A stretch of 20,033 nucleotides of DNA from a virus, in IMG/VR virus record IMGVR_UViG_3300002907_000008, positions 1-20,033 of that record, one strand, 5' to 3'. Positions 5,594 to 20,033 of this stretch are shown here, piece after piece (the first letter of the stretch is position 1; each line of letters begins with the position of its first letter). The notes under the pieces are model-generated. The model was given only the letters and a program-made list of their open reading frames with translations, was not told where the DNA came from and searched no databases. A program made the translations under genes and the position numbers.

Positions 5594-8344
5594 GTGCCAC
5601 AGCAGACCCAGGCCACCCTGGCCTTCAACCGCGGGATCCTCTCGGATCTGGGGCTCGCGCGCATTGATCTGACGCGCTATCGGATGGCCGCGCTCACCAT
5701 GGTGAACTGGATCTGCAGGGTCCTGGGCAGCATGAGCCTGCGGCCCGGACTCGGGTACCTCACGGGCACCAAGAACAATCTGCTGGCCAAGGCCCTGCCT
5801 TTCGTCTTTTCCCACGATGATCTGGCGCGCATCGAGGTCACGCAGGGCACAATCCGCGTGCTCATCTCCGATGCCCTGGTCACCCGGCCCGCCGTCACCG
5901 CCGTGATCACGAACGGCACCTTTGCGGGGAGTCTGGCCGGCTGGACGGATTCGGACGAGACCGGGGCGGCGAGCACCTGGAATGCCGGCGGGTTCGCCCA
6001 GCTCGTGGGCACGGGCACCAACAATGCGATCCTGGACCAGCAGGTCACGATCAACGAGAGCGGCATCGAGCATGCCCTCCGGATCGTCATTACCCGCGGG
6101 CCCATCACCTTCCGCTGTGGCACCACCCAGGGCGATGACTCCCTGATCCACGAAACTTTTCTCGGCGTGGGCACACACTCCCTCACCTTCACCCCGGTGA
6201 CCGGCTCGGTGTGGATCCGCTTTATGAACCCGAACATCCCGGCCGCCTACCTGGTATCGGTGGCGATCGAGGGGGCCGGGATCCTCGAGCTCCCCAACCC
6301 CTGGCTGAGCACGGACCTGGGCAACATCCGCTCGGCCCAGTCCGCTGATGTGACCTACGTCGCGGTCCCAGGCTACCAGCAGCGAAAGATTGAACGCCGC
6401 TCGCTCCGTTCCTGGTCGATCGTGCTGTACGAGCCCACGGACGGGCCGTTCCGGGTGCTCAATGTGACGCCCATCACCCTCACCGGGAGCGCGCTCTCAG
6501 GGGACATCACCGTCACGGCGAGCAAGCCGCTCTTTAAGCCCACCCAGGCCGGCGCGCTCTTTCGCATCGCCTCGGTCGGCCAGAACACCGCGGCCAGCAT
6601 CTCCTCGGATAGCACCTTCACCGATCCGATCCGGGTCGATGGCATCGGGGATCAGCGCGCCTTCGCCTGGCAGGTCGCCGGCGTCTTCGTCGGGACGGTC
6701 ACGCTGCAGGTGTCCGTGGGGGCGCCGGGCGCCTGGTCGGATGTGGCGAGCACCACGGTGCCGGCCTTCACCCCGGCCTACAACGACACCTTCGACAACC
6801 AGGTCATGTACTACCGCCTCGGCATCAAGGCGGGCCAGTACACCTCGGGCACTGCGGTGTGTACCCTTTCCTTCAGCGCCGGTTCCATCACCGGGATCGT
6901 CAAGATCCGCTCCATCACGGATTCCACCCACGCGCAAGCCTCCGTGCTCGCCTCCCTCGGGGGCACGACCGAGAGCGCGGACTGGTCGGAAGGCGCCTGG
7001 TCGGATTTCCGGGGATGGCCCCAGACGGTCAAGATCCACGAGGGGCGCCTGTGGTGGTTCGGGATCACCATCTACGGCTCAGTGTCAGATGACTTCGAGA
7101 ACTTCGATGACAACACGCTGGGGCCCAGCGCGCCAATCTCGCGCAGCATCGGGGAAGGGGCGATCGAGAACATCTACTGGGCAGTCTCGCTCCAGCGGCT
7201 CCTGGTGGGCACCGCATCGGCGGAGATGAGCTGTCGCTCCTCCAGCCTCGATGAGCCCCTCACCACCACCAACTTCGTGATCCGCCCCTCGAGCAGCCAG
7301 GGGTCCGATAACGTCGATGCGCTGCGCCTGGACAAGTTCGGGATCTTCGTGCAGATCGGCGGTGAGCGCGTGTTCAAGATGGAGATCGACTACTTCGTCC
7401 AGGACTACAAGGCCGAGGACCTCACGCTCCTGGTGCCCGGCCTCAATGTGGCCGGTGTAGTGCAGATTGCAGTACAGCGGAAGCCCGACACTCGATTGCA
7501 CTGCCGCCGAGGCGATGGGAGCGTGGCGATCCTGGTGCTCGATGCGGCCGAGAACGTGCTCGCCTGGCAGGAGTGGGAGAGCCCCAACGGGTTCGTGGAG
7601 GACATCTCGATCCTCCCGGCGGTGAGCTCGAGCGAGGATCAGGTCTATTACATCGTGCGCCGCGTGATCTTCGGGGTGACGGTGCGCTACCACGAGAAGT
7701 GGGCGCTGGAGAGCCAGTGCACGGGGCTGACCGATGCGCGGCTCCTGGACTCGCACATCATCTACTCGGGCGCCGCGGTGACGACGATCGGGGGACTGGC
7801 GAGCCTCGCCGGCCAGGTGGTCTCGGTGTGGGGCTGGAATAGCGCCGTGCCCTACATCGATGGGAACGGCAACACGGTGGGCCGGGACCTGGGCACCTTC
7901 ACGGTGAGCGCCGGCGGGCAGATCAGCGGCCTGCCCTTCCAGGTGACTGATGCCTGCATCGGCATTCCCTACACCGCGCCCTGGCAGTCGATGAAGCAGG
8001 CGTTCGCGGCCGCCATGGGTACCCCGCTCAACCAGCTCAAGCGCATTGACAAGCTGGGCCTGATCCTGAAGAACACCCACGCGCTGGGCATCCAGACCGG
8101 CGCGGACTTCGATCACCTCGATGACCTGCCGCTCGTGGACCTGCCGGTGCTGCAATCGGCCCAGAGCCTGGAGCCCGGGGAGGCCAATTACGCGGACGTC
8201 GATGCGATCCTCAACACCTACGATTACCAGATGAGTGCCTTCGATGATGTCTGGTCGACCGACTCGCGGGTGTGCCTGCAGGCCGCTTCCCCAAGGCCCT
8301 GCACGGTGCTGGCCTTCGCCGTTGAGATGGCCACGGAGGGCTGA
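5594..8344 (+). CDS. Tail tubular protein B (T7 gp12-like nozzle) with inserted jelly-roll-like domain
   Basis: This 916-aa protein starts with GTG, preceded by AAGGGG (5579-5584) with 9-nt spacing. The family signature at residues 9-60 includes FNRGILSDLGLARIDL, a Y-x-x-x-A ... N-W segment and RPGLGYL. Residues 476-505 hold PQTVKIHEGRLWWFG followed by S-D-D-F-E-N-F-D, another hallmark of nozzle proteins. T7 gp12 has 794 aa; the extra length is largely a block at about residues 105-230. That block begins TNGTFAGSLAGWTDS, ends before GILELP, and looks like a galactose-binding-type beta sandwich. The protein forms the lower tail tube through which DNA and ejection proteins leave. Its TGA overlaps the next ATG by 1 nt. 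Confidence 0.9.
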   Translation: MPQQTQATLAFNRGILSDLGLARIDLTRYRMAALTMVNWICRVLGSMSLRPGLGYLTGTKNNLLAKALPFVFSHDDLARIEVTQGTIRVLISDALVTRPAVTAVITNGTFAGSLAGWTDSDETGAASTWNAGGFAQLVGTGTNNAILDQQVTINESGIEHALRIVITRGPITFRCGTTQGDDSLIHETFLGVGTHSLTFTPVTGSVWIRFMNPNIPAAYLVSVAIEGAGILELPNPWLSTDLGNIRSAQSADVTYVAVPGYQQRKIERRSLRSWSIVLYEPTDGPFRVLNVTPITLTGSALSGDITVTASKPLFKPTQAGALFRIASVGQNTAASISSDSTFTDPIRVDGIGDQRAFAWQVAGVFVGTVTLQVSVGAPGAWSDVASTTVPAFTPAYNDTFDNQVMYYRLGIKAGQYTSGTAVCTLSFSAGSITGIVKIRSITDSTHAQASVLASLGGTTESADWSEGAWSDFRGWPQTVKIHEGRLWWFGITIYGSVSDDFENFDDNTLGPSAPISRSIGEGAIENIYWAVSLQRLLVGTASAEMSCRSSSLDEPLTTTNFVIRPSSSQGSDNVDALRLDKFGIFVQIGGERVFKMEIDYFVQDYKAEDLTLLVPGLNVAGVVQIAVQRKPDTRLHCRRGDGSVAILVLDAAENVLAWQEWESPNGFVEDISILPAVSSSEDQVYYIVRRVIFGVTVRYHEKWALESQCTGLTDARLLDSHIIYSGAAVTTIGGLASLAGQVVSVWGWNSAVPYIDGNGNTVGRDLGTFTVSAGGQISGLPFQVTDACIGIPYTAPWQSMKQAFAAAMGTPLNQLKRIDKLGLILKNTHALGIQTGADFDHLDDLPLVDLPVLQSAQSLEPGEANYADVDAILNTYDYQMSAFDDVWSTDSRVCLQAASPRPCTVLAFAVEMATEG

Positions 8345-8964
8345 TGGATCCCACCCTCATGGACCCGCGCGCCGCACCTGCGAGCATCCTTCGCTCCCCG
8401 ATCGAGCCGCCAGGCCCCCCGCTCGTGCGGCGCATGAAAAGCGCCACCTACACCCGCGAGAGCCTCGCGCAGGTGCGCGCCGATGGGATCGAGCAGCTCC
8501 TCGAGCTGCACTACCGGGAGATCGCGCACTTCCAGGATATTGCGCTCGACGTAGACTGGGAGAAGTACGAGCGGGCCGAGGCGAGCGGGCACCTGCGTGC
8601 CTTCATCGCCCGGGTCGATGGGCGGATGGTGGGCTACATGGCGATACTGGTCGATCACAACGGGCACTACCGCGGGAGCCTGCAGGCCGTCCAGGACGTG
8701 CTATTCATCGAGCCTCGGTGGCGCGGCGGGTGGCTCGCCTACCGCCTACTCCACTTTGCCCACCTCGCCCTCCTGGCCGAAGGGGTGCAGGTGGTGTACC
8801 AGCACATCAAGGCGCAGCACGATCACAGCCGATTGCTGCTCAAGATCGGCTACGAGCTCGTGGATTTGATCCTCGCCAAGCGCCTCGATCGCGACGTCGC
8901 GCTGGCCAAGCACCTCTCGCGCATGGGCTCTGCCGAGCGCAGCGCACTTGAGGGAGGGGCGTAA
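8344..8964 (+). CDS. GNAT-like acetyltransferase fold protein at the T7 gp13 position
   Basis: This 206-aa protein's ATG overlaps the previous stop (TGATG), and GGAGGG lies at 8335-8340. A later Met at residue 31 is possible, since residues 1-30 are Pro-rich and poorly structured. Residues 45-115 contain LLELHYREIAHFQDI, D-V-D-W, RAFIARVDGRMVGYMAI, H-Y-R-G-S-L-Q-A-V-Q-D-V-L-F-I, and after these the acetyl-CoA loop region RWRGGWLAYRLL (125-136). The order of strands and helices matches GNAT proteins encoded in the tail/ejection region of many podophages. The usual Q/R-x-x-G-x-G/A loop reads R127-G-G-W-L-A132, so Trp replaces the central Gly. The substrate is unknown. It may be a virion or ejection-assembly protein and not an active enzyme. 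Confidence 0.8.
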   Translation: MDPTLMDPRAAPASILRSPIEPPGPPLVRRMKSATYTRESLAQVRADGIEQLLELHYREIAHFQDIALDVDWEKYERAEASGHLRAFIARVDGRMVGYMAILVDHNGHYRGSLQAVQDVLFIEPRWRGGWLAYRLLHFAHLALLAEGVQVVYQHIKAQHDHSRLLLKIGYELVDLILAKRLDRDVALAKHLSRMGSAERSALEGGA

Positions 8965-9429
8965 ATGGGTGCCACCGCACTGATCGCCGCGACCGCCGTC
9001 ACCGCGCTGAGCAAGATCGGGGCGGGCAACGCCAAGAAGGCCGAAGCCGACTACTCCGCCGGCGTGCTCGATCAGGAAGCCGGGCAGACCGTGGCGAGCA
9101 GCATCCAGGGCATGCTGATCGAGCGACGGCGGAAGGACCAGGTGGCGAGTGCCGCGAAGGCCTCGCTCGCCGCCAGCGGCGCCACCTCGACCGATCCGTC
9201 CGCCGTCAAGGTACGCGGCCAGATCGAGGGAGCTGGGGAGTACCAGGCCCTCACGAAACTCTACGAGGGGGAGGATCAGGCCATCCAGCTGCGCTCCAAG
9301 GCGACGAGCCTGCGCTCCACCGGGAAGGCGGATCAGACCGCCGGTTATTTCGGGGCGGTCTCCAGCATCTTCAGCGGCGGCGGGTCCTGGTTCGACAAGT
9401 ACGGAGGGGACGCGGCCACCGCGACCTAA
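8965..9429 (+). CDS. Internal virion protein, T7 gp14-like
   Basis: This 154-aa protein's ATG follows the GNAT stop directly, with GGGAGGGG upstream. Residues 2-18 are a hydrophobic Ala/Ile/Val segment (GATALIAATAVTALSKI), a likely membrane-inserting helix. A long charged amphipathic region follows, with NAKKAEADYSAGVLDQEAGQ, IERRRKDQVASAAKASLAASGA and GAGEYQALTKLYEGEDQA. This Q/A/E-rich helical arrangement with the 'ASG.....DPS' turn and 'EGAGEYQAL' is typical of gp14-like proteins. These are ejected first and form the outer-membrane part of the DNA channel. T7 gp14 has 196 aa. The Gly/Ser-rich tail is unremarkable. The gene order before a gp15-sized gene supports the call. Confidence 0.85.
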   Translation: MGATALIAATAVTALSKIGAGNAKKAEADYSAGVLDQEAGQTVASSIQGMLIERRRKDQVASAAKASLAASGATSTDPSAVKVRGQIEGAGEYQALTKLYEGEDQAIQLRSKATSLRSTGKADQTAGYFGAVSSIFSGGGSWFDKYGGDAATAT

Positions 9430-9432
9430 CCC

Positions 9433-11724
9433 ATGGCGGACATCCCCGACTACACCGCACTTGGCACCCCGCAGGCCCCAAGCCCCGCGCCGGCGCGCCG
9501 GCTCGCGCTCCAGGGGGATCTGTCCGGTGAGGTGCTGGCGCAGGCCGGTGAGGAGCTCGGACGGTCCCTTGATACTCTGGGGACCGACATCTACGAGCGC
9601 CAGCAGAAGGATCACATCGCGGCGGTGAACCTCGCGCGGGCGCAATCGAGCAACGCGAGCCTCGATCACCAGATCGCCGTAGAGAGCGCCGCGGAGCAGA
9701 CGCGCCAGGGCATCGCCAATGGGGAGATCCCCTACGAGGAGGCGCGGCAGCACTTCAACGAGCAGGTCGCCGCGATCCCCCCGCCCAACATCCCGAACCT
9801 GGACGCGGTGGGGACCGAGAACCAGAACAAGTACCTGGTGCGCAGCATCGCCACGGCGGGCTTCAAGGTCGACGCCGCGGTGGACGGCGCTCGTCGCCAG
9901 GACTTCAAGGACCAGTTCATCGGGAACATGCAGCGCCTCGATAAGCTCGCCGGCATGCCCGGGGCCGACATCGAGGCGATCAACGCCCAGGCCGATGCCT
10001 TCCGCCCGCTCGCCATCAAGGCGGGCGTCCCGGCCGTTGAGGTGGACAAGGCGATTGCGGACGTGAAGGACTCCAACTGGTTCAACCAGGCCGATCAGCG
10101 CGTCATGCTCGCGAAGGACAACTGGGGGGCGCTCAAAGTGCTCCAGCACGATCTGAGCGCCGCCGACGGCTACTACGCCGGGCGCCTCAAGACCGCGCGC
10201 CGCGATGAGTTGCTGCGCAGCGTGGTCAATGACCAGCTGATCCTCGAAAACCGCGCCGAGCACGAGCACGATAAGCGCGAGGCGAAAGCGGGCCAGGCCA
10301 TGCGCCAGGCGGGCGAGATGATCTCGAGCACCATGCCGCTCTCCGCCCAGAACTGGGCGGAGCTGGGCGCCGAGGTTCAGGGCACCAGCTACGAGGCGGA
10401 GTTCGCCGGGCTCCAGAAAAACGAGGAGAAGGTCCAGGAGGTGGTGCGCATGCCACCTGCTGATCAGGCCCGCTATGTGCAGCAGGAGGCAGGCAAGCTC
10501 GATGCGGCGCAGCCCGGCACGATGATCGAGCGGCTCCAGGCACGGGCGAACTTCGAGCGCCTGCAAAGCGCGGTCAACCAGAACTCGAAGCTGATGACCG
10601 ACTCCCCGATCCTGTGGTCGGCCAATCGCAACGGGACGGAGGTCGCGGAGATCGACTTCACGGGCCTCGCCACCGAGCAGGGCCAGGCGCAGATCGGCCA
10701 GGCGCTCGCCGATCGGATGGCCACCATCCGCGCACTCCAGGCCAAGAACGGCACCCAGATCGGGGATAAGCCGATCCTGCCCCAGGAGGCGGCCGGATTG
10801 ACGAGCTACCTGCAGAGCATCGAGCCCTACAAACGCGCCCTGGTGCTCACCGCGCTCCGCCGCTCCACGAAGGATGATCAGACCTACCAGGCCACCATGG
10901 ATCAGATCGCCCCGCACTCGCCCGTTACCGCGATCGCCGGCACCATGGTGGGCGCCTCGGCCCCCTCACGGACGCCCGTCTGGTTCAACCCCGTCTACGC
11001 CCCGAAGCTCGATGATGTGCAGCTCGTGCTGCACGGGGAGGAACTCCTCAACCCCACCTCGGCGGGCAAGGCCGCTGGGCTCGAGACCGAGAAAGGGGGC
11101 CTGAAAGCCCCGATGCCCATGCCCCCGGACACGGGCCCGAATGGGCTGCGCACCGTCTTCGGGAACGCCACCTCGGACATGTTCCGCGATAACACCCAGG
11201 GGTTCGATGCGTACTTCTCGGTCTTCAAGGACGCCTACGCCGCGCTCCTGGAGCGCAAGGGCAACATGAAGGGGACCCCGGACACCCAGGCACAACGCCA
11301 GGCGCTCCAGATCGCCCTGGGGCAGATGACGACGTTCAACGGCAACCAGGTCTCAGTCCCCCGCGGCATGGATCCCTCCCAGTTCACCATGCTGGTGCGC
11401 GCCGCGGTCAGTCAGCAGGCCAAGGACCTGAAAGCCCCCGCCGACTGGCAGCAGCGCCTCTCGGGCTACCAGCTCGTGGATCTGGGGCGCACGCTGGGGA
11501 GCGGGCGCTTCGGGATCACGATCGGTGGGCTGCCCATGGTGAACCCGAACGGCAAGGGCTACTTCGCCATAGACCTGCGCGGCCAGTACGATCCGTCGCG
11601 CGGCGCCACGCCGGCGCACGAGCGCGTCCGGCCCAATGTGCCCACCGAGGGGTTCATCTACGATCCGGTGGCCCGAAAGCTCATCCCGGATCCGGGCTGG
11701 GCGCGCACGAGCGCAACGCCATGA
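9433..11724 (+). CDS. Internal virion protein, T7 gp15-like
   Basis: This 763-aa protein compares with 747 aa for T7 gp15. The ATG lies 3 nt after the previous stop; the nearest SD-like run (9403-9409) is about 23 nt away, so coupling is likely. Residues 1-35 are Pro/Ala-rich. Residues 35-380 are mostly long charged helices (GEELGRSLDTLGTDIYERQQKD, EHEHDKREAKAGQAM), consistent with the helical tube that spans the periplasm during ejection. The C-terminal third is more globular (GFDAYFSVFKDAYAALLER; GSGRFGITIGGLPMVNPNG). No lytic transglycosylase motif is seen. The last four bases overlap the next gene (ATGA). The call rests on length, helical content and gene order more than on a sharp motif. 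Confidence 0.82.
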   Translation: MADIPDYTALGTPQAPSPAPARRLALQGDLSGEVLAQAGEELGRSLDTLGTDIYERQQKDHIAAVNLARAQSSNASLDHQIAVESAAEQTRQGIANGEIPYEEARQHFNEQVAAIPPPNIPNLDAVGTENQNKYLVRSIATAGFKVDAAVDGARRQDFKDQFIGNMQRLDKLAGMPGADIEAINAQADAFRPLAIKAGVPAVEVDKAIADVKDSNWFNQADQRVMLAKDNWGALKVLQHDLSAADGYYAGRLKTARRDELLRSVVNDQLILENRAEHEHDKREAKAGQAMRQAGEMISSTMPLSAQNWAELGAEVQGTSYEAEFAGLQKNEEKVQEVVRMPPADQARYVQQEAGKLDAAQPGTMIERLQARANFERLQSAVNQNSKLMTDSPILWSANRNGTEVAEIDFTGLATEQGQAQIGQALADRMATIRALQAKNGTQIGDKPILPQEAAGLTSYLQSIEPYKRALVLTALRRSTKDDQTYQATMDQIAPHSPVTAIAGTMVGASAPSRTPVWFNPVYAPKLDDVQLVLHGEELLNPTSAGKAAGLETEKGGLKAPMPMPPDTGPNGLRTVFGNATSDMFRDNTQGFDAYFSVFKDAYAALLERKGNMKGTPDTQAQRQALQIALGQMTTFNGNQVSVPRGMDPSQFTMLVRAAVSQQAKDLKAPADWQQRLSGYQLVDLGRTLGSGRFGITIGGLPMVNPNGKGYFAIDLRGQYDPSRGATPAHERVRPNVPTEGFIYDPVARKLIPDPGWARTSATP

Positions 11725-14700
11725 CCGATCTCAGCCCCTACGAGGAGGAGCGCCTGAGCAACGCCGGGCCTGCGATCAATCCGTGGGAGGGCCCGGCGCC
11801 GGTGAGCACCTGGTCCGGCTTCCTGCACGATGATGACTATGGCTACGCCGCCCCGCTCGCCCGGATCCTCGAGGTGCCAGGCCACGCGGTGGCGGCCGGT
11901 GAGGGCATGCTCGCCGGCCTGGCGCACGATTCCTATGGTCTCGTCGATCATGTCCTCGGGGGGATCCCCGGCGTGCACAAGTACGTCACGCAGCCGATCA
12001 TCGATGAGGCGGACTGGTGGCGGAACGATGCCAAGGAGCGCGTCCAGGCCCTCACCCCCAGCGCCACGCAGGTGGGCTCGGCGATCCAGACGGGCCACTC
12101 CCTGCTCACCGCCCTGACCGAGGCGGGCTTCGGCGGTGCGGCGGCCGGCCCGTACCTCGCCGCCGCGACGGTCGGGGGCAGCCAGGGCTACGAGCGGCGT
12201 GCGCAGCTGGAGGCTTCTGGCGTGGCCCCGGCGCCGGCCGGGTTTATCGGATTGGAGACCGCCGCGACGAGCGCCGCCGGGGTCCTCACCCCAGGGCTCG
12301 GTGGGGTAGGGACCAGCCTGATGGCCCGCTTGCTCACCGGTGCGGGCGCGAACGTGGGCTTCGGGGTGGCCAATCGCTACGCTGATCACCTGACCCTCGA
12401 GGCGGCCGGCTACCCGGACATGGCCCAGCAGCAGAAGGTCTGGGACGGCTACTCGATGCTCTTCGATGCGGTCCTGGGTGCCGGATTCGGCGGGCTGGGG
12501 CACCTGCACCACCAGGCGGGTATGCGCGATCTGAGCGCCCGCCTGGCCGCGCTACGCCAGATTCCGGGCGTGGAGGATGCCGTCATGGCCGCGCAGCTGG
12601 GCCTGCGCGCTCAAGGACTTGGGCCCGGGATCCCCGCGGATCCGGCCGCTGCGGCCGCGCACCACGCCGCGCTCGAGAAGGCCACCGAGGATCTGATCAA
12701 CGGGCAGCCGGTGGATGTGTCCGGCACCGGGGTCGACACGGCCAACTTCGTGCCCTTCTACCATGGCTCCCCGCACGAGTTCACCTCGTTCGAGGCCGGT
12801 AGGATCGGCACCGGGGAGGGCGGCGACAGTTTCGGGCACGGCATCTACCTGGCCGAATCCCGAGCCGTGGCCGACAGCTACGCCGAAGCGCTAGGCGCGA
12901 GGAGCATCCGGCTGGGTGAGAAGGTGGTCGCTCCGAACGATTTCCCGATCGACAGTCCCCAGCGCCAGGCCCTCAGCGCGCTGATGAACCACAACGGCGT
13001 CATTCCCGAAGCGATTGCAGGCCTGCGCGCTCAGGCCAAGGGTGTGGAGGACAGCGCTCATTTCGAGGCCGCCGCAAAGTGGCTGGAGAAAAACCGCAAG
13101 CAGATCAGCTCCACGATCGGGAACGTCTACCAGGTCCGCGTGCCCTCCGAGGCGGTCGGGCGCATGCTCGACTGGAACGCGCCCCTGAAGGACCAGCCAC
13201 CCGCGGTGCAGCAGTACATGCACTCACTCGGCCAGGAGAAGCTCGGAATGCTGGTCAACCACGGGGTGCCGCTGAAGGACTACTCGGTGCTCGATCGAAA
13301 AACCGGGAAGGATCTTTACGAGGGGCTCGCCCTTCAGCATCTCCGCACCGCCGGGGAGGGGGCCGATCACGCCGCCTTCGCCTCGGGCGAGCTGCAGCGC
13401 TCCGGTATCCCGGGCCTGCGCTACCTCGATGCCTTTTCCCGCAGCGGAGAGGCGCTCAAGGCGCCCACCCGCAACGCCGTGCTGTTCGAGGAGAAGCTCG
13501 CACAGGTCGCCGCCCGCGAAGGGGCCCGTCCCTACCAGGCGCCCGAGCAGCCCATCAGCACCGCCGGACTTGATCCACGTGAAACAATCCTCGTGAAGTC
13601 CTTCCAGGACGCGGGGTTACTGGAGGCGCAGCGCAACGTCGAGGCGCTCGAGCAGGCCCTCAACGTGCGCCTGGGCCGCGGAGCACCGGAAAGGATTACC
13701 GCACCATTGCGGCCCGAGGGCACCCCGAGCTCCCCCTCCCCGACCGCACCGGTGGGCAAGCGCTGGTATGCCGATCGTGGGGCGATCCCAGGGGAGCCGG
13801 CGCAGTACCTGGACGTGCAGGGCGATGATCTGGACACCGCCAAGGCGGTGATCGTCGAGCGCCCCATGGAGGGGACGAGCAACTCCACCTGGGAGGCGCT
13901 CCTGCCTGGCGGCCAGAGCCTCGGGGTCTTCGACACTGAGGAGGAGGCCGGCCGCGCGGCCGAGGTCGCGGTTGACAAAACCGGCACCACGTCGGGTTCG
14001 GTTGCCTCGGAGCTCGCAGCTGCTCGAAAGGCCCCGCCTCCGGGCTTCAAGATCCACCCGGATGAGATCCCGCGGGCCGACCCGGGCAAGCTCACCGAGG
14101 CGCAGCGCGCGATCGAGACTCGCTTCGCCGAGCAGATCGCCCGGGACCCGGAAGCCGCCGAGCACCAGTACGCCCAGATTGAGGAGACTGATGGCGGGCG
14201 GATCCTCAACACCGACACCGCGCGCGAGCTCTCGGAGGACTACCTGAACGACAGAAGCCAGTCAGCGGCCGTGCATGAGCCGTCCAGCTGGCTGATCAAG
14301 CGCCTTTACGCCCGGATGCTGAAAGAGGCCCCGAAGCCGGGCTTCGATCCGCTGGTGCTGTTCATGGCTGGCGGCACGGGGGCGGGCAAGACCAGCATGG
14401 TGCGCGCCACCGCCGGGGAGCTGTTCAGCAGGGCGCAGATCATCTACGACACGAACATGAGCGGCCTGGATGGGGCGATCGGCAAGATCAACCAGGCCCT
14501 CGATGCCGGCAAGCGCGCGGATGTGGTGTACATCTACCGCGATCCGGCTGAGGCCCTCGCCCACGGCGCTCTCACGCGCGCCATGAAGCAGGAGGCCCAG
14601 TGGGGTTCGGGGCGGACCGTGCCGCTCGAGGAGCACACCAATACGCACGTGGGCTCCAATCATGTGATCCGCCTGGTCGCGAGCCACTTCGAGGGTCACA

Positions 14701-16370
14701 CGGACGTCGGCCTGCGATATGTTGACAACGCGCGCGGCGCGGGCAAACAGGCCGAAGTTCCTTTGGAGCAGATCCCCCGCCTGGAGTACAATGTCACCCG
14801 TGAGCAAGTCGCGAAAACCCTCGAGGACGAGTACGCCGCGGGGCGCATCTCGGAAGCCGTCTACCATGGATTCGGGGGCACCGGCCCCGCCGGCGAGCCT
14901 GGACGAGCTGGCGCAGCCGGCGGCGCAGGACCAGCGGATGAAGCAGCTCCTGCAGAACATGAGCCGCAACGTGGGCCAGGACGTGCTGACGAGCTAGGCG
15001 CCACCCGAAGCGTCTACACCGCCGCGGGCCGCCAGATCGAGGTGCGCCCGAAGCTGATCGAAGCGGCCGATCTCACCACCAGCGACAAGCCTGGCTACCC
15101 ACAGGATCTGCAACCACGCCAGCGCGGAGAGCGCACCGCGCTCGCCAGCCAGGTGCAGGATATGGCCCGGAACCTCAAGCCCGAGATGCTGGGCCAGAGC
15201 GCCGAGGCCGATCGCGGCGCCCCGATCGTGGGGGCGGATAACGTGGTGGAAAGTGGGAACGGGCGGGTCATGGCGCTGCGCCAGGTGTACGAATCCCTCC
15301 CTGAGCAGAGCACTGCCTACCGTAAGTTCCTGACTGACAGCGGTTACGACATTGCTGGGATGAAGGAACCGGTGCTGGTGCGCGAGCGCGTCACACCCAT
15401 GAGCCCGGCCGAGCGCTCCGCCTTCACGGGCGAGGCGAACGTCGGGACCACGGCCACTTATTCACCGGTGGAACAAGCGCAGGCGGATGCGAAGCTCCTC
15501 GACAGCGGTACGCTGGCGAAGATGGCGGGGGCGGACCTCACCACCTACACGAACGCGGCCTTTCTTCGGGACTTCGTATCCGGCCTGGCGCCCTCGGAGC
15601 GCTCCGCCGTGATGAACCCGGACGGCACGATCAGCCAGGCGGGGGTGCGACGGGTGCAATCGGCCATCCTGGCCAAGGCCTACGGCGGTACGCCCGAGTC
15701 CAATGCCACTCTGGGCCGGTTGCTCGAGTCGACCGAGACGGGCCTCAAATCGACCCTCAACGCCCTGGTGGACGCAGCTCCCGCCTACGCGAGGCTCAAG
15801 CAGATGATCGAGGAGGGGACGATCGGGCGCGAGTACGACATCGCCCCGGCGATCGTGCAGGCGGTCGAAGATGTGGCGCGCCTGCAGCTCACCGGCCAGA
15901 GCCTGACCGAGCACTTCGCCCAGGCCGACCTGCTGAGCCCCAAGGCACTCGCCACCCAGGCCTTCTACGACAAGGCCGGTGAGCGCCTGGCCGGTCGGGA
16001 CAAGGCCGCCGCGGCGCTCATCCGCTATGCCGACCAGGCGATGGCGCAGCGATTGAATCAGGGGCAACTGTTCGGGGACCCCCCGGCCAGCCCCACCGAG
16101 CTGCTGCAGAACGCCAAAAAGCCCGAAACCGGGGATCTGTTCGGACTGCGAACTAAATCCGGGGAGCTCGCCCCCGGGAGCATCGTGGTGAGCGCGGCGC
16201 GCTCGGCGATCGAGGAGCGGCCGAATATGGAACTGCCCGATGAGACTGGCCAGGTGTACCGGGCAAAGGCGGCGCTGCTCGCCACCGCGGAGGCGGATCG
16301 AAGCACCTCGGAGCGGGCAGCGCCGGCGATTGAGGCGGCCACGGACTGCTTCTTGAGGAAAGGGCCATGA
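11721..16370 (+). CDS. Giant polyvalent ejection protein: ADP-ribosyltransferase-like, zeta-toxin-like kinase and DdrB-type ParB domains
   Basis: This 1549-aa protein starts at an ATGA overlap and sits at the gp16 position. Residues about 120-270 are Gly/Ala-rich and membrane-prone. Residues 346-595 look like an ART-PolyVal ADP-ribosyltransferase: FYHGSPHEF (346-354, H348), GTGEG, FGHGIYLAE (371-379, Y376), and an RNAVLFEEK end. Residues about 815-1020 match zeta-toxin kinases: NTDTAREL (830), VHEPSS (851), Walker A GGTGAGKT (884-891, K890), YDTN (D910), YIYRDP, GSGRTVP (R965), and an H-x-N-T-H-x-G segment. Residues 1107 to about 1370 match the DdrB-ParB domain: EVRPKLIEAADL, a P-Q-x-L-Q-P-R segment, ESGNGRVMALR (1177-1187). 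Fusion of such domains defines phage 'polyvalent' proteins, thought to enter hosts with the DNA. Activity is inferred. Residues about 1050-1100 form a collagen-like linker with odd codon use. The ATGA overlap couples it to the next gene. Confidence 0.88.
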   Translation: MTDLSPYEEERLSNAGPAINPWEGPAPVSTWSGFLHDDDYGYAAPLARILEVPGHAVAAGEGMLAGLAHDSYGLVDHVLGGIPGVHKYVTQPIIDEADWWRNDAKERVQALTPSATQVGSAIQTGHSLLTALTEAGFGGAAAGPYLAAATVGGSQGYERRAQLEASGVAPAPAGFIGLETAATSAAGVLTPGLGGVGTSLMARLLTGAGANVGFGVANRYADHLTLEAAGYPDMAQQQKVWDGYSMLFDAVLGAGFGGLGHLHHQAGMRDLSARLAALRQIPGVEDAVMAAQLGLRAQGLGPGIPADPAAAAAHHAALEKATEDLINGQPVDVSGTGVDTANFVPFYHGSPHEFTSFEAGRIGTGEGGDSFGHGIYLAESRAVADSYAEALGARSIRLGEKVVAPNDFPIDSPQRQALSALMNHNGVIPEAIAGLRAQAKGVEDSAHFEAAAKWLEKNRKQISSTIGNVYQVRVPSEAVGRMLDWNAPLKDQPPAVQQYMHSLGQEKLGMLVNHGVPLKDYSVLDRKTGKDLYEGLALQHLRTAGEGADHAAFASGELQRSGIPGLRYLDAFSRSGEALKAPTRNAVLFEEKLAQVAAREGARPYQAPEQPISTAGLDPRETILVKSFQDAGLLEAQRNVEALEQALNVRLGRGAPERITAPLRPEGTPSSPSPTAPVGKRWYADRGAIPGEPAQYLDVQGDDLDTAKAVIVERPMEGTSNSTWEALLPGGQSLGVFDTEEEAGRAAEVAVDKTGTTSGSVASELAAARKAPPPGFKIHPDEIPRADPGKLTEAQRAIETRFAEQIARDPEAAEHQYAQIEETDGGRILNTDTARELSEDYLNDRSQSAAVHEPSSWLIKRLYARMLKEAPKPGFDPLVLFMAGGTGAGKTSMVRATAGELFSRAQIIYDTNMSGLDGAIGKINQALDAGKRADVVYIYRDPAEALAHGALTRAMKQEAQWGSGRTVPLEEHTNTHVGSNHVIRLVASHFEGHTDVGLRYVDNARGAGKQAEVPLEQIPRLEYNVTREQVAKTLEDEYAAGRISEAVYHGFGGTGPAGEPGRAGAAGGAGPADEAAPAEHEPQRGPGRADELGATRSVYTAAGRQIEVRPKLIEAADLTTSDKPGYPQDLQPRQRGERTALASQVQDMARNLKPEMLGQSAEADRGAPIVGADNVVESGNGRVMALRQVYESLPEQSTAYRKFLTDSGYDIAGMKEPVLVRERVTPMSPAERSAFTGEANVGTTATYSPVEQAQADAKLLDSGTLAKMAGADLTTYTNAAFLRDFVSGLAPSERSAVMNPDGTISQAGVRRVQSAILAKAYGGTPESNATLGRLLESTETGLKSTLNALVDAAPAYARLKQMIEEGTIGREYDIAPAIVQAVEDVARLQLTGQSLTEHFAQADLLSPKALATQAFYDKAGERLAGRDKAAAALIRYADQAMAQRLNQGQLFGDPPASPTELLQNAKKPETGDLFGLRTKSGELAPGSIVVSAARSAIEERPNMELPDETGQVYRAKAALLATAEADRSTSERAAPAIEAATDCFLRKGP
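14866..14997 (+). other. Possible nested 43-codon reading frame inside the polyvalent gene linker
   Basis: In the +1 frame relative to the host gene, ATG 14866 to TAG 14995-14997 encodes 43 residues ending with an amphipathic-looking RMKQLLQNMSRNVGQDVLTS. GGAAG at 14852-14856 lies 9 nt before the ATG and could act as an SD. By direct count 41 of 43 codons end in G or C, against 19 of 43 in the host frame over the same bases. Host-frame codons elsewhere usually end in G or C. Part of this is automatic, because the host frame here uses Ala, Gly, Pro, Glu and Arg codons that begin with G or C. It could be a real nested gene, the trace of two compensating frameshifts, or a chance effect. Confidence 0.3.
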
Positions 16371-18967
16371 AGCCGGCGTGTCTTGATGCGGTGGAAAAGG
16401 CGCTCGGCCGGCCGCTCACCGCGGGGGAGGCCGAGAAGATCGAATCGCAGGTGAACCTGCAGATGCGCCTCGCGGGCCGCAAGGACCCCACCGCCTGGTC
16501 AGCGCTTTCTAGCACCCAGCGCCTCGAGCAGGGCGCCAAGGCCGCGGCCGAGGCCATGCTCCACGAGGTGCAGAAAAAGGCGCAGCGCCTGCGCCTGCAG
16601 ATCGGCGTGCACGATCGGATCGACAACGCGCTCAACGATCGGATGGAGGAGCGCGACGAGGCGGCCAAGCGGACCAAGCCCGGGGATCTGCTCCGTGACG
16701 CCTCCGGGATCCTCGCCTTCGATGTGAAAGGGCACGGGTTCACCAGCGTGGAGACCTGGGCGCATTCCATCGCGAACGAGAGCTTCGGGCGACTGATGCC
16801 CCTGTGGAACGCGGTCAAGGGATTCGCCGGACTGTTCGAAGATGCCAAGGGGGTCTCGAGCCTGGTGCGCGAGCTCTTTGGGGAGGACACGGGCGATGCG
16901 GACGCGAAGGCGGCCGCCCGCGCCTGGCACCAGGTGGTCGATGAGCTGCGCGATCGGGCCAACGCGGCGGGCCTGGACATCGGCAAGCTCGATGAGTGGC
17001 ACTACCCGCAGAGCCACAGCCAGGCGCGCGTGGCACTCGCCGGCCTTGCGAAGTGGGTCAGCGACACCCTCCCGCTCCTCGATCGCGCGAAGTACCTGCA
17101 CGAGGATGGGGCTTCCATGTCCGATGAGGAGGTCTCGGACATGCTGCGCAACGTCTACGACACGATCACCTCCGATGGGATCAGCAAGAGCGAGCCTGGA
17201 GCGCCGAAGGGGTACGGGTCCACCGCCAGCCGCTTGAGCCAGCACCGGGCGGTGTTCTACAAAGACGCGGCGAGCTTCCTCACCTACCAGGCGAAATACG
17301 GGGAGCGGAATCTCTGGAGCGTGCTCACCGGGCACATCCGCGCCGTCTCGCGCGACACCGCGCTCGCCGAGGTCGCGGGCCCCAATGCGCGCGCCACCTT
17401 CGATTATTTCAACGATCGGGCGCTCAAGCAGGAGATGGCCCTCAACCCGACCGCGGCCAACAAGATCAAGTCCGCCTACAAGTTCAACCAGACCCTGTTC
17501 GACTACGTGGCCGGATCCCGCGAGGTGGTCAACCAGAAGATCCAGGACGTCGGCCAGGCGTTCCGCAATTTCGAGGTGGCGAGCAAACTCGGCCAGGTGG
17601 TGATCACCGCTCTCGGGGATGAGGCGGGCATGGCCGCCACCGCGTTCGCCAACCGGGTGCCCTGGACGGAGTCCATGGCACGAGAGCTCACCTACATGAG
17701 CCCGGGCAACGCCACCGATCGGGCGATCGCGGCGCACGCCGGACTTGGGATCAACGGCATCATCGGAGGGCTGAATCGCTTCGGCCAGGAAGACCTTCAG
17801 CTCTCCGGTGGTGTGGGTTCGGCCGCCGGCGCTCGGCTCCTCACGGCCAAGCTGGCTAACGCCACGCTCCACTTATCAGGTGCAGAAGCCATGTGGGACG
17901 CGCGCCGGCGGGGCCTGGGCTCGGTCCTGATGAGCTACCTGGGGAAGACGGTGGCCAGCGTCGATCACTTCGCCGACATCAATCCGGCCGATCACGGGGT
18001 GCTCGCCAACAAGGGCATCAGTGAGGCGGACTGGCAGGTGTGGAAGAAGGCTGAGCTGGAGGACTGGGGCATGAAGCACGGGGTACTGACCCCGAAGTCC
18101 GTCTGGAGCATCCCGGATGAGCAGCTGCAGCCCCTTGGGGACCCGCGCACGTTGAAGCGTCACGCTGCCACCGCGCTCCTCGGTCACGTGCTCGAGGAGA
18201 CCGGGATGGGTGTCATGGACACTGGCGCGCGGGAGCGGGCGCGCATGAGCATCGGCACCACCGCGGGCACGGTGGGTGGGGAGCTGGTGCGCTCCGGGAT
18301 GCTCTTCAAGGGATTCTCGGCTTCCATGATGATGAAGCACTGGGCGCGCGCTTCCGACATGCCCACGGGCCGGGACCGGGTGATGTACGCCACCAAGCTG
18401 ATGACCGTGAGCCTGATCCTCGGGGCGGTAGCGAACCAGCTGCGCGCCCTGGTGGCCGGCCAGGACCCGCACAACATCGCCGAGCCGGTCTTCTGGGGTG
18501 ATGCGGCGCTGCGCGGCGGGGGCCTCGGATTCTACGGGGAGTTCCTGCACAGCGAACTCACGAGCCACGACACGAGCCTGATCCCTGCGCTGATGGGCCC
18601 GCTCGCCACGGAGGCCGAGACGATCTGGAACCTCACCGGTGGAGCGGCCTTCAAGGCGATGCGCGGAGAGCGGACAGACGAGGGGGCGCACGCGCTGCGC
18701 TTCATCCAGGGCAACATTCCGCTGCTCAATATGTGGTACACCCGGGCGGCCATGAACCACCTGCTGTGGAATGATCTGCAGGAGGCGGCCAGCCCGGGGT
18801 ACCTCGATCGCATGCAGAACCGCGCCTTCATCCAGAAAGGGACCACCTGGTGGTGGGATCCGCACGAGGGCCTGCCGAGCGCCGCCCCGGACTTCGGGAA
18901 GCTGTGGCAACCCGAGCTCGGGGCTGAGCAGCTTCAACGCCTGAAAGACACCGCCGGCTTGCAGTAG
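16367..18967 (+). CDS. Second large ejection protein (T7 gp16-like region)
   Basis: This 866-aa protein's ATG overlaps the previous TGA and is preceded by GAGGAAAGG at 16355-16363. Residues 20-110 are charged helices. Residues 125-190 (NESFGRLMPLW ... LVRELFGEDTG) and the short DEWHYPQSHSQ segment (209-219) resemble a conserved 'W-x-x-P-Q-x-H' motif of gp16-type internal proteins of podophages. About residues 672-695 form a hydrophobic stretch (YATKLMTVSLILGAVANQLR) that could insert in the inner membrane. The C-terminus has an aromatic-rich end (KGTTWWWDP) typical of this group. No transglycosylase motif is seen. It probably works with the upstream polyvalent protein as the inner-membrane part of the ejection channel. 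The call is by motif and order; specific activity is unknown. Confidence 0.8.
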   Translation: MKPACLDAVEKALGRPLTAGEAEKIESQVNLQMRLAGRKDPTAWSALSSTQRLEQGAKAAAEAMLHEVQKKAQRLRLQIGVHDRIDNALNDRMEERDEAAKRTKPGDLLRDASGILAFDVKGHGFTSVETWAHSIANESFGRLMPLWNAVKGFAGLFEDAKGVSSLVRELFGEDTGDADAKAAARAWHQVVDELRDRANAAGLDIGKLDEWHYPQSHSQARVALAGLAKWVSDTLPLLDRAKYLHEDGASMSDEEVSDMLRNVYDTITSDGISKSEPGAPKGYGSTASRLSQHRAVFYKDAASFLTYQAKYGERNLWSVLTGHIRAVSRDTALAEVAGPNARATFDYFNDRALKQEMALNPTAANKIKSAYKFNQTLFDYVAGSREVVNQKIQDVGQAFRNFEVASKLGQVVITALGDEAGMAATAFANRVPWTESMARELTYMSPGNATDRAIAAHAGLGINGIIGGLNRFGQEDLQLSGGVGSAAGARLLTAKLANATLHLSGAEAMWDARRRGLGSVLMSYLGKTVASVDHFADINPADHGVLANKGISEADWQVWKKAELEDWGMKHGVLTPKSVWSIPDEQLQPLGDPRTLKRHAATALLGHVLEETGMGVMDTGARERARMSIGTTAGTVGGELVRSGMLFKGFSASMMMKHWARASDMPTGRDRVMYATKLMTVSLILGAVANQLRALVAGQDPHNIAEPVFWGDAALRGGGLGFYGEFLHSELTSHDTSLIPALMGPLATEAETIWNLTGGAAFKAMRGERTDEGAHALRFIQGNIPLLNMWYTRAAMNHLLWNDLQEAASPGYLDRMQNRAFIQKGTTWWWDPHEGLPSAAPDFGKLWQPELGAEQLQRLKDTAGLQ

Positions 18968-18976
18968 GAGCAGCCC

Positions 18977-20033
18977 ATGACCGCAACGACTGTCGACCGC
19001 CTGTTTGGCGAATCCTCCTCGGTGGCGGTCAAGGCGCCCGTCCGGGCGGTCTCCAGCATCGCGAACATCACGCTGTCTGGACTGCAGACCGTGGGCGGCG
19101 TGCTACTCGTTGAGGGCGATCGGGTGCTGGTGGCGGCCCAGACCGATTCGAAACAGAACGGCATCTACAACGCCTCGGCGAGTGGGTGGACCCGGGCCGG
19201 GGACTTCAACGATAACCGCGATGCCGTCCAGGGCACGGTGGTGATCGCGCAAGGTGCGCTCTGGGCCTCCTACCAGCTGACCACCCCGAACCCGGTCCAG
19301 TTCGGCACGACTCCGATCACCTTCTCCCCGCCTGCGGCGGGCATGGTCACCCAGGCGATCATCGCCGCGCTCCTCTCGGGCTCGATCTTCAATGCCACGG
19401 TGGATGGCCCTGCCCCGGTCATTCTGCGCCAGGCCTACAACTACTCGGGCGGCACGGCCGGCTTCGTGGTCCCGGTCCTCAACATGCGGGCGGACGTCAC
19501 CGACTGCGGCGCGAACTACCCGTGGACGTGCCTGGCCACGATGTTCAACTCCTCGACGGGCAGCGCCCAGGCGGTCGCCTTTTACGGCCAGGGCTCCAAG
19601 GTGGTGGCGAACGCGAGCCCCACCTGGGGTGCGGCCTTTGCCATCCGGGAGATGACCAGCACGCCCGATCCGACCACGGGAAGCGTGGCCCTCGAGCTGG
19701 ACCTGCAGGCGAACGGGACGGACATCCACTCCGGCCGCGTGATCTGCGATGCGGTGATCATCCCCTACACCCCCTATGGCTCGGGTGGGGCCACGGTCAC
19801 GGCGACCTATGGATACCGCGTGTCCAACGGGAACGACACGCGCAGCGTTGTGAGTTTCCCGTTTGCGCTGGGCATCGGGCTGCAGTGCTTCGCGGGCTTC
19901 GACACCTCGCGCGCCACCTGCACCGCGGCCGCCTACATGCTCGCTCAAGGGCAGGGCATCGTGTTCGATGGGGCCGCGGGCACCCACTTCATCTCCTACG
20001 ATGGCACGGGCCTGGGCTTCCACGCGGCCGGGA
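18977..20033 (+). CDS. Tail fibre or tailspike protein, N-terminal part (runs off window)
   Basis: ATG at 18977 follows an AGGAG SD (18966-18970) 9 nt after the previous stop. The frame stays open to the window end, giving 352 residues. Residues 20-110 form a well-known fibre N-terminal repeat: VRAVSSIANITLSGLQTV, then GVLLVEGDRVLVAAQT, KQNGIYNAS and GWTRAGDF, ending LTTPNPVQFGTTPITF. This domain attaches fibres or spikes to the tail, and the distal part normally binds or cleaves surface polysaccharide. Residues 135 onward are beta-rich with Gly/Thr/Ser, Tyr-Gly turns and two Cys in DTSRATCTAAAYM and GLQCFAGF. The position after the ejection genes matches T7 gene 17. The receptor-binding end is outside the window, so its specificity is unknown. 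Confidence 0.85.
   Translation, partial: MTATTVDRLFGESSSVAVKAPVRAVSSIANITLSGLQTVGGVLLVEGDRVLVAAQTDSKQNGIYNASASGWTRAGDFNDNRDAVQGTVVIAQGALWASYQLTTPNPVQFGTTPITFSPPAAGMVTQAIIAALLSGSIFNATVDGPAPVILRQAYNYSGGTAGFVVPVLNMRADVTDCGANYPWTCLATMFNSSTGSAQAVAFYGQGSKVVANASPTWGAAFAIREMTSTPDPTTGSVALELDLQANGTDIHSGRVICDAVIIPYTPYGSGGATVTATYGYRVSNGNDTRSVVSFPFALGIGLQCFAGFDTSRATCTAAAYMLAQGQGIVFDGAAGTHFISYDGTGLGFHAAG

What the first reader, a model, noticed from the sequence alone, without database searches (positions are those of the whole stretch)
11721..16370. One injected protein carrying ADP-ribosyltransferase, zeta-kinase and ParB domains
Three effector-type domains sit in one 1549-aa protein encoded between gp15-like and gp16-like ejection genes. 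ART motifs (H348, Y376), a Walker A box (884-891) with the zeta-family N-T-D and V-H-E-P leader, and the E-S-G-N-G-R motif of DdrB-ParB (1177-1182) are all visible. Position implies delivery with the genome, analogous to T4 Alt. A zeta-type kinase could phosphorylate UDP-sugars or another small molecule, and an ART could modify host or defence proteins. The particular combination and its role are unproven.
Basis: partly seen in the sequence, partly recalled or inferred. Interest (0 to 1): 0.75.

Follow-up and report, generated by a model that had tools for sequence, protein, structure and literature searches.

The report
Phage ejection protein carrying three effectors
A short-tailed phage has built three enzyme-type domains (an ADP-ribosyltransferase, a zeta-type kinase and a ParB-like domain) into one of the proteins it probably shoots into the bacterium with its DNA, and related phages carry different enzymes in the same protein, so it looks like an exchangeable payload carrier.

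Summary
ORF 11721-16370 (+) encodes 1549 aa. ddrB-ParB (E 8e-32) and Zeta_toxin (E 2e-12) pass Pfam. ART-PolyVal is below Pfam's cutoff (27.1 vs 31.2 bits), but a confident AlphaFold2 model (pLDDT 89) matches phage proteins named ART-PolyVal (E 3e-16), and the family keeps an H348-Y376-D570 triad. The kinase is of the gonococcal ng_zeta1 type, with the catalytic Asp ahead of the Walker A; D832, K890, R953 and R965 are invariant in 64 phage relatives.

One correction of the setting: this is not an extra gene between ejection genes. It is the epsilon15 gp16 position itself (synteny TTA-TTB-GNAT-gp14-gp15-gp16-gp17). A conserved helical N-domain (1-335) and C-terminal tail (Cys in 135/135 relatives) flank a variable middle. 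Relatives carry lytic transglycosylase, ART, zeta, ddrB-ParB, PBECR nucleases, GGDEF or nothing recognised there; the four nearest have GGDEF, zeta+ParB (twice) and ART.

This is a polyvalent protein (Iyer et al. 2017), so the class is known. I did not find the epsilon15-gp16 chassis with swappable cargo described. Ejection and enzyme activity are inferred, not shown.

The parts
11721..16370 (+). Polyvalent ejection protein, 1549 aa (epsilon15 gp16 position); overlaps the genes on both sides by 4 bases (ATGA)
   Evidence: synteny
11721..12725 (+). Conserved N-terminal carrier domain (aa 1-335), helical, Gly/Ala-rich
   Evidence: phrog_1145 E 3.7e-35; alignments A1, A7; AF2 of a minimal carrier
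12753..13514 (+). ADP-ribosyltransferase domain (aa 345-598), triad H348-Y376-D570
   Evidence: Pfam below cutoff; conservation; AF2 pLDDT 89.4; BFVD matches
13515..14060 (+). Linker region (aa 599-780), no recognised domain
14061..14993 (+). Zeta-type kinase module (aa 781-1091), ng_zeta1 layout: D832 before Walker A 884-891 (K890); R953, R965
   Evidence: Pfam E 1.8e-12; profile vs 6EPH E 8.3e-15; 64/64 conservation
14997..16187 (+). DdrB-like module (aa 1093-1489), ParB core 1103-1223 with ESGNGR 1177-1182
   Evidence: Pfam E 8.1e-32; 31% identity to phage P1 DdrB over 1091-1453
16173..16370 (+). Conserved C-terminal tail (aa 1485-1549), G1510, A1540, C1543
   Evidence: Cys in last 14 aa in 135/135 slot proteins; column counts; helix, hairpin, long helix in AF2
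9433..11724 (+). gp15-type ejection/head protein, 763 aa
   Evidence: phrog_992 E 7.1e-36; synteny
16367..18967 (+). epsilon15 gp17-type virion protein, 866 aa
   Evidence: phrog_684 E 2.1e-234; tblastn to epsilon15 and phiV10
8344..9429 (+). GNAT-like gene (8344-8964, epsilon15 gp13 position) and gp14-type internal virion protein (8965-9429)
   Evidence: phrog_1249 E 2.2e-13 and phrog_418 E 6.4e-21

Best explanation
The gene encodes the epsilon15 gp16-type ejection protein of a podovirus, used as a carrier for effector domains. Its helical N-domain and short C-terminal tail are the conserved structural ends that fit it into the ejection machine with the gp15- and gp17-type proteins. Between them lies a spacer that AF2 leaves disordered in a cargo-free relative, and into it three modules have been placed: an H-Y-D ADP-ribosyltransferase, an ng_zeta1-type small-molecule kinase and a DdrB-type ParB module. 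The protein is packed in the head, leaves ahead of or with the DNA, and its middle reaches the cytoplasm. There the ART modifies host or defence macromolecules with NAD+, the kinase phosphorylates a nucleotide-activated metabolite (UDP-sugars are the leading candidates), and the ParB module acts as an NTP-dependent DNA-linked factor, as proposed for DdrB. Shown: sequence, domain identity, catalytic residues, synteny, conserved ends, cargo exchange between relatives. Inferred: virion packaging, ejection, cytoplasmic exposure, all enzyme activities and targets.
For: Domains. Position and conserved ends: gene order identical to epsilon15, phiV10, Pseudomonas YA3, Alcaligenes Piluca and Burkholderia BcepC6B; N-core phrog_1145; C-tail Cys in 135/135 relatives, G1510 97% and A1540 96% of 75 clusters. 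Cargo exchange: slot contents differ between relatives; on a gp17 tree of 42 rows cargo needs at least 15 changes, and the window's clade (100/100 support) holds ART+zeta+ParB, GGDEF, zeta+ParB twice and ART. Minimal carrier model: spacer 327-356 with pLDDT <50 between folded ends. Delivery: epsilon15 ejects internal proteins (PMC8954989), its injection device is described as gp4, gp20, gp15 and gp17/16 (PMC12391199), and the DdrB relative is in P1 virions (39 peptides, 59.5% coverage; PMC9024508). Of 67 loci found by a kinase search alone, 27 have the kinase in a protein with the N-core or directly before a gp17 gene (counted).
Against: No virion proteomics or activity data for this phage or for any cargo-bearing member that I could find. 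Transglycosylase cargo must act in the periplasm, so slot position alone does not prove that the middle reaches the cytoplasm. ART-PolyVal is below Pfam's cutoff, and no PDB fold match is significant (best E 0.068, although the top matches are ARTs). The carrier domain matches no solved structure.
Confidence: 0.72

Rival explanations
1. The cargo acts mainly on the envelope: the kinase drains UDP-activated cell-wall precursors from the inner face of the membrane, weakening the wall for DNA entry or affecting later infection, as Iyer et al. proposed for zeta domains in mobile elements.
For: The kinase is of the ng_zeta1 type, which phosphorylates UDP-sugars; many relatives carry a transglycosylase in the same slot; Iyer et al. 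suggest wall weakening.
Against: ng_zeta1 Lys59 is Arg here (R835) and Asn75 falls in an alignment gap, so UNAM preference is not supported; ART and ParB are not explained by it.
Confidence: 0.3
2. The kinase and ART form one NAD-centred counter-defence unit: the kinase phosphorylates NAD+ or a derived signal while the ART uses NAD+, blunting NAD-dependent host defences.
For: AvrRxo1, named as a structural neighbour of ng_zeta1, is from my own knowledge an NAD kinase; ART and zeta co-occur in three slots; a NUDIX domain sits with a zeta domain in L260.
Against: Zeta occurs alone in many slots; no residue-level evidence for NAD binding; the ART itself needs NAD+.
Confidence: 0.12
3. The middle is mainly structural ballast or decayed effectors with no catalytic role, retained as spacer in the ejection channel.
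For: Some relatives have no recognisable cargo at all, so cargo is dispensable for the core role.
Against: Catalytic residues are invariant: zeta D832, K890, R953 and R965 64/64; ART Y376 and D570 82/82, H348 76/81. Decay would not keep them.
Confidence: 0.05

Closest known systems
Polyvalent proteins of phages and conjugative elements (Iyer et al. 2017, PMC5512222)
   Same: Several effector domains from the named repertoire (ART-PolyVal, zeta kinase, DdrB-ParB) in one phage protein among late genes, predicted to be injected. That paper already cites an Acinetobacter DdrB-ParB + lysozyme protein; the Acinetobacter slots found here have that make-up.
   Different: The passages read mention zeta in conjugative elements and MuF fusions, not in an epsilon15-type ejection protein. 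Conserved N-core and C-tail with an exchangeable middle at the gp16 position were not described in what I could read.
Epsilon15 gp16 (and phiV10 p19) ejection-cluster protein
   Same: Same gene position, N-core and C-terminal tail.
   Different: Epsilon15 and phiV10 forms are 600-634 aa with no recognised effector cargo.
MuF polymorphic toxins of temperate phages (Jamet et al. 2017, PMC5576092)
   Same: Logic: a virion-associated conserved part with variable toxin cargo.
   Different: MuF toxins belong to the DNA-packaging module of Firmicutes phages. Here there is no MuF domain and the cargo is internal, between two conserved ends.
T4 Alt
   Same: Head-packaged ADP-ribosyltransferase injected with DNA.
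   Different: Alt is R-S-E; this is H-Y-D, inside an ejection protein, with two further domains.
Gonococcal ng_zeta1 kinase (6EPH; PMC5923241)
   Same: Rewired order (catalytic Asp block before Walker A), Walker Lys and Arg patch.
   Different: No antitoxin gene beside it; UNAM-specific Lys59 and Asn75 not kept.
Phage P1 DdrB
   Same: 31% identity over a 360-aa ParB module; DdrB is a virion head protein.
   Different: P1 DdrB belongs to the Dar system of a myovirus and has a C-terminal metallopeptidase.

Membership tests
Polyvalent proteins | Two or more distinct effector domains of the known repertoire in one polypeptide | tested here: met
Polyvalent proteins | Encoded by a phage in late/virion gene context | tested here: met
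Polyvalent proteins | Delivered into the host with the genome | not testable with these tools
   inferred from position and from epsilon15 and P1 literature
ART-PolyVal (Tox-ART-HYD2 clade) | Catalytic H (strand 1), Y (strand 2), D (strand 5) | tested here: met
   H348 76/81, Y376 82/82, D570 82/82; in the model H and Y lie in strands 15-22 and 47-50, D just after strand 237-240 (model residue = protein residue - 328)
ART-PolyVal (Tox-ART-HYD2 clade) | Pfam PF18760 score above its gathering cutoff | tested here: not met
   27.1 vs 31.2 bits; fold matches in BFVD support the call nonetheless
Zeta kinase, ng_zeta1 type | Walker A Lys, catalytic Asp upstream of it, Arg patch | tested here: met
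   D832, K890, R953, R965 each 64/64; 6EPH E 8.3e-15; the Arg175 equivalent is off by one in the alignment
Zeta kinase, ng_zeta1 type | UNAM-specific contacts Lys59 and Asn75 | tested here: not met
   Lys59 aligns with R835; Asn75 lies opposite a gap
Zeta toxin-antitoxin system | Adjacent antitoxin gene | tested here: not met
   neighbours are gp15- and gp17-type virion genes overlapping by 4 bases
DdrB-like ParB | Profile match with the conserved Arg | tested here: met
   E 8.1e-32; ESGNGR ends in R1182
Epsilon15 gp16 ejection family | Position between gp15 and gp17 with conserved N-core and C-tail | tested here: met
Epsilon15 gp16 ejection family | Present in virions and ejected | not testable with these tools
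   Guichard et al. 2013 not held; cited in PMC12391199
T4 Alt | R-S-E catalytic triad | tested here: not met
   H-Y-D instead
MuF polymorphic toxins | MuF domain | tested here: not met
   no MuF match in Pfam

The most novel reading that the evidence does not exclude
The epsilon15 gp16 family is a general, exchangeable effector-delivery chassis of short-tailed phages of Pseudomonadota. A conserved N-domain and a Cys-bearing C-terminal tail mark a protein for packaging and ejection, and many different enzymes can sit between them, including ART, zeta kinase, ParB, nucleases and even a diguanylate cyclase.
Probability: 0.6. Interest if true: 0.75.

Novelty: new variant of a known kind. Interest (0 to 1): 0.58.

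Why it matters
If right, a single gene position, recognisable by its neighbours and by a conserved Cys tail, lists proteins that epsilon15-like phages deliver into Pseudomonadota at the start of infection. That makes injected phage effectors findable in prophages at scale and makes the packaging signal, the ejection topology and the effector targets testable in one system. It also places ng_zeta1-type kinases and a GGDEF domain among candidate injected phage effectors.

Tried and rejected
Direct searches of viral contigs with the whole protein and with the ART alone found no relative; alignments were needed. E590 (V-L-F-E) as third ART residue was rejected because that column is D/P/E, whereas D570 is invariant. 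Sequence-profile matches of the ART to PDB entries (gp41, cholix) are chance-level and were not used. NCBIfam gave no family for the protein and PADLOC only a weak match over the Walker A region. Fold search of the carrier gave no significant match; weak membrane-protein matches were not interpreted. No 19-residue stretch averages above 1.2 on a hydropathy scan, so a transmembrane claim was dropped. An antitoxin neighbour was looked for and not found. 'None' in the cargo labels means no Pfam match, not proof of no cargo. The larger gp17 tree lacked the window and has long branches, so the 42-row tree with the window is the one relied on.

Full report
WHAT IS THERE. The ORF is real and as described: 11721-16370 (+), 1549 aa, ATG start. 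It overlaps the genes before and after it by the four bases ATGA and has strong coding periodicity (GC at codon positions 71/50/84%). Pfam gives ddrB-ParB at 1103-1223 (E 8.1e-32), Zeta_toxin (E 1.8e-12) and ART-PolyVal at 345-390 (E 8.3e-6, but 27.1 bits against a cutoff of 31.2).

THE ART DOMAIN. This was the weak link, so I tested it further. A profile built from the window and three annotated phages found at least 585 related stretches in IMG/VR. Across about 82 sequences, H348 is kept in 76 of 81, Y376 in 82 of 82 and D570 in 82 of 82; E590 is not conserved. AlphaFold2 on 40 sequences gives mean pLDDT 89.4 and pTM 0.81, with H348 and Y376 in the first two strands and D570 at the end of a later strand that I read as the fifth. 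In BFVD the model matches phage proteins named ART-PolyVal (E 2.9e-16). In the PDB no match is significant, but the top 24 are ADP-ribosyltransferases (cholix, exotoxin A-like toxins, ParT). Iyer et al. define the polyvalent ART clade by H (strand 1), Y (strand 2) and D (strand 5), which this fits.

THE KINASE. A profile of six slot kinases matches only one solved protein, gonococcal ng_zeta1 (6EPH, E 8.3e-15). That enzyme has a rewired order in which the catalytic Asp block precedes the Walker A, and it phosphorylates UDP-sugars at the 4'-OH (PMC5923241). The window kinase has the same order: D832 (Asp56), K890 (Lys115), and R953 and R965 near Arg175 and Arg181, each invariant in 64 phage relatives. 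The residues that favour UNAM are not kept: Lys59 is R835, and Asn75 lies opposite a gap. So a zeta-type kinase is well supported, but its substrate is not.

THE PARB MODULE. Residues 1091-1453 are 31% identical to phage P1 DdrB. DdrB is a virion head protein in P1 (39 peptides, 59.5% coverage, PMC9024508). The activity of this domain is a prediction in the literature.

THE POSITION. The gene order (tail tubular A, tail tubular B, GNAT, gp14-type, gp15-type, this protein, gp17-type) is that of Salmonella phage epsilon15 and matches phiV10, YA3, YeP5, Piluca, TPWB-05 and BcepC6B. The downstream gene is epsilon15 gp17-type (phrog_684, E 2e-234), not T7 gp16. The protein is therefore the gp16-position protein itself. 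It shares with epsilon15 gp16 a helical N-domain (aa 1 to about 335, phrog_1145) and a C-terminal tail.

THE CHASSIS. I collected 157 further gp17 loci from IMG/VR and from bacterial genomes and read the ORF directly upstream. Of 135 intact ORFs of 400 aa or more (window included), all 135 have a Cys within the last 14 residues. Across 75 clusters the tail keeps G1510 (97%) and A1540 (96%); those clusters were chosen with the Cys, so 135/135 is the independent figure for it, though near-copies are counted. Lengths run from 404 to 1549 aa. The middle holds, by Pfam: nothing recognised; SLT transglycosylase; SLT + ddrB-ParB; SLT + PBECR1; SLT + LPD3; PBECR3; ART-PolyVal; ddrB-ParB; ddrB-ParB + ART; zeta; zeta + ddrB-ParB; zeta + weak ART + ddrB-ParB (L024, L262); GGDEF. 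Where SLT is present it comes first after the N-domain in every case seen. Of 67 loci found with the kinase alone, 27 have it in a protein with the N-core or directly before a gp17 gene (counted); the search alignment was itself made of slot kinases, so this share may be high. AlphaFold2 of a minimal carrier (L016, 422 aa) gives helical, folded ends (mean pLDDT 76) with a disordered spacer at 327-356 where cargo would go.

CARGO EXCHANGE. On a gp17 tree of 42 rows the cargo label changes at least 15 times. The window's clade (100/100 support) contains ART+zeta+ParB (window), GGDEF (L002, 66% identical gp17), zeta+ParB (L027 and L006) and ART (L004). Cargo is thus exchanged while the neighbouring virion gene stays recognisably related. 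The ART matches in L024 and L262 are weak (E 0.0027 and 0.0011), and those proteins are not hit by the window's ART profile. L006's cargo is read from L254, a second stretch of the same contig.

MECHANISM. Best reading: a podoviral ejection protein carrying three effector modules into the cell at DNA entry. Epsilon15 ejects internal proteins (PMC8954989) and its injection device is described as gp4, gp20, gp15 and gp17/16 (PMC12391199). NAD+, ATP and UDP-sugars are cytosolic, so the middle should reach the cytoplasm; a transglycosylase placed first, next to the N-domain, fits a chain that runs from periplasm to cytoplasm, as proposed for T7 gp16. Packaging, ejection, topology, activities and targets are inferred.

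NOVELTY. Polyvalent proteins, including these three domain types, were described by Iyer et al. (PMC5512222), as was an Acinetobacter ParB + lysozyme protein. MuF toxins give a precedent for variable cargo on a virion-associated part (PMC5576092). I found no description of the epsilon15-gp16 chassis, but only open-licence papers were searchable. I therefore file it as a new variant of a known kind.

Noticed in passing
L002 8088-10001: The nearest relative (gp17 65-66% identical) carries a GGDEF domain with an SGDEF motif in the same ejection-protein slot: a candidate injected diguanylate cyclase.
   Followed up: partly
window 5594-8344: The tail tubular protein B homologue is 916 aa against a 712-position PHROG profile, so it carries about 200 extra residues.
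   Followed up: no
window 8344-8964: A GNAT-like protein at the epsilon15 gp13 position, kept in several relatives within the ejection cluster; role unknown.
   Followed up: no
L260 4990-7785: A 931-aa phage protein without the N-core combines a zeta kinase and a NUDIX domain.
   Followed up: no
L266-L269, L272, L274, L276: Stand-alone ORFs of about 340-360 aa end right after the zeta domain (ISExxYxGF), in stretches without gp16/gp17 homologues.
   Followed up: no
L265, L270, L295, L299, L304, L318: The same zeta kinase sits inside very large (about 1900-3700 aa) proteins outside the gp16 slot.
   Followed up: no
L172 2621-8545: A virus assigned to Methanomicrobiales hosts encodes a relative of the window's ART inside a 1974-aa protein near an internal virion protein gene.
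   Followed up: no
window 18977-20033: Tail-fibre-like gene cut off by the end of the contig.
   Followed up: no
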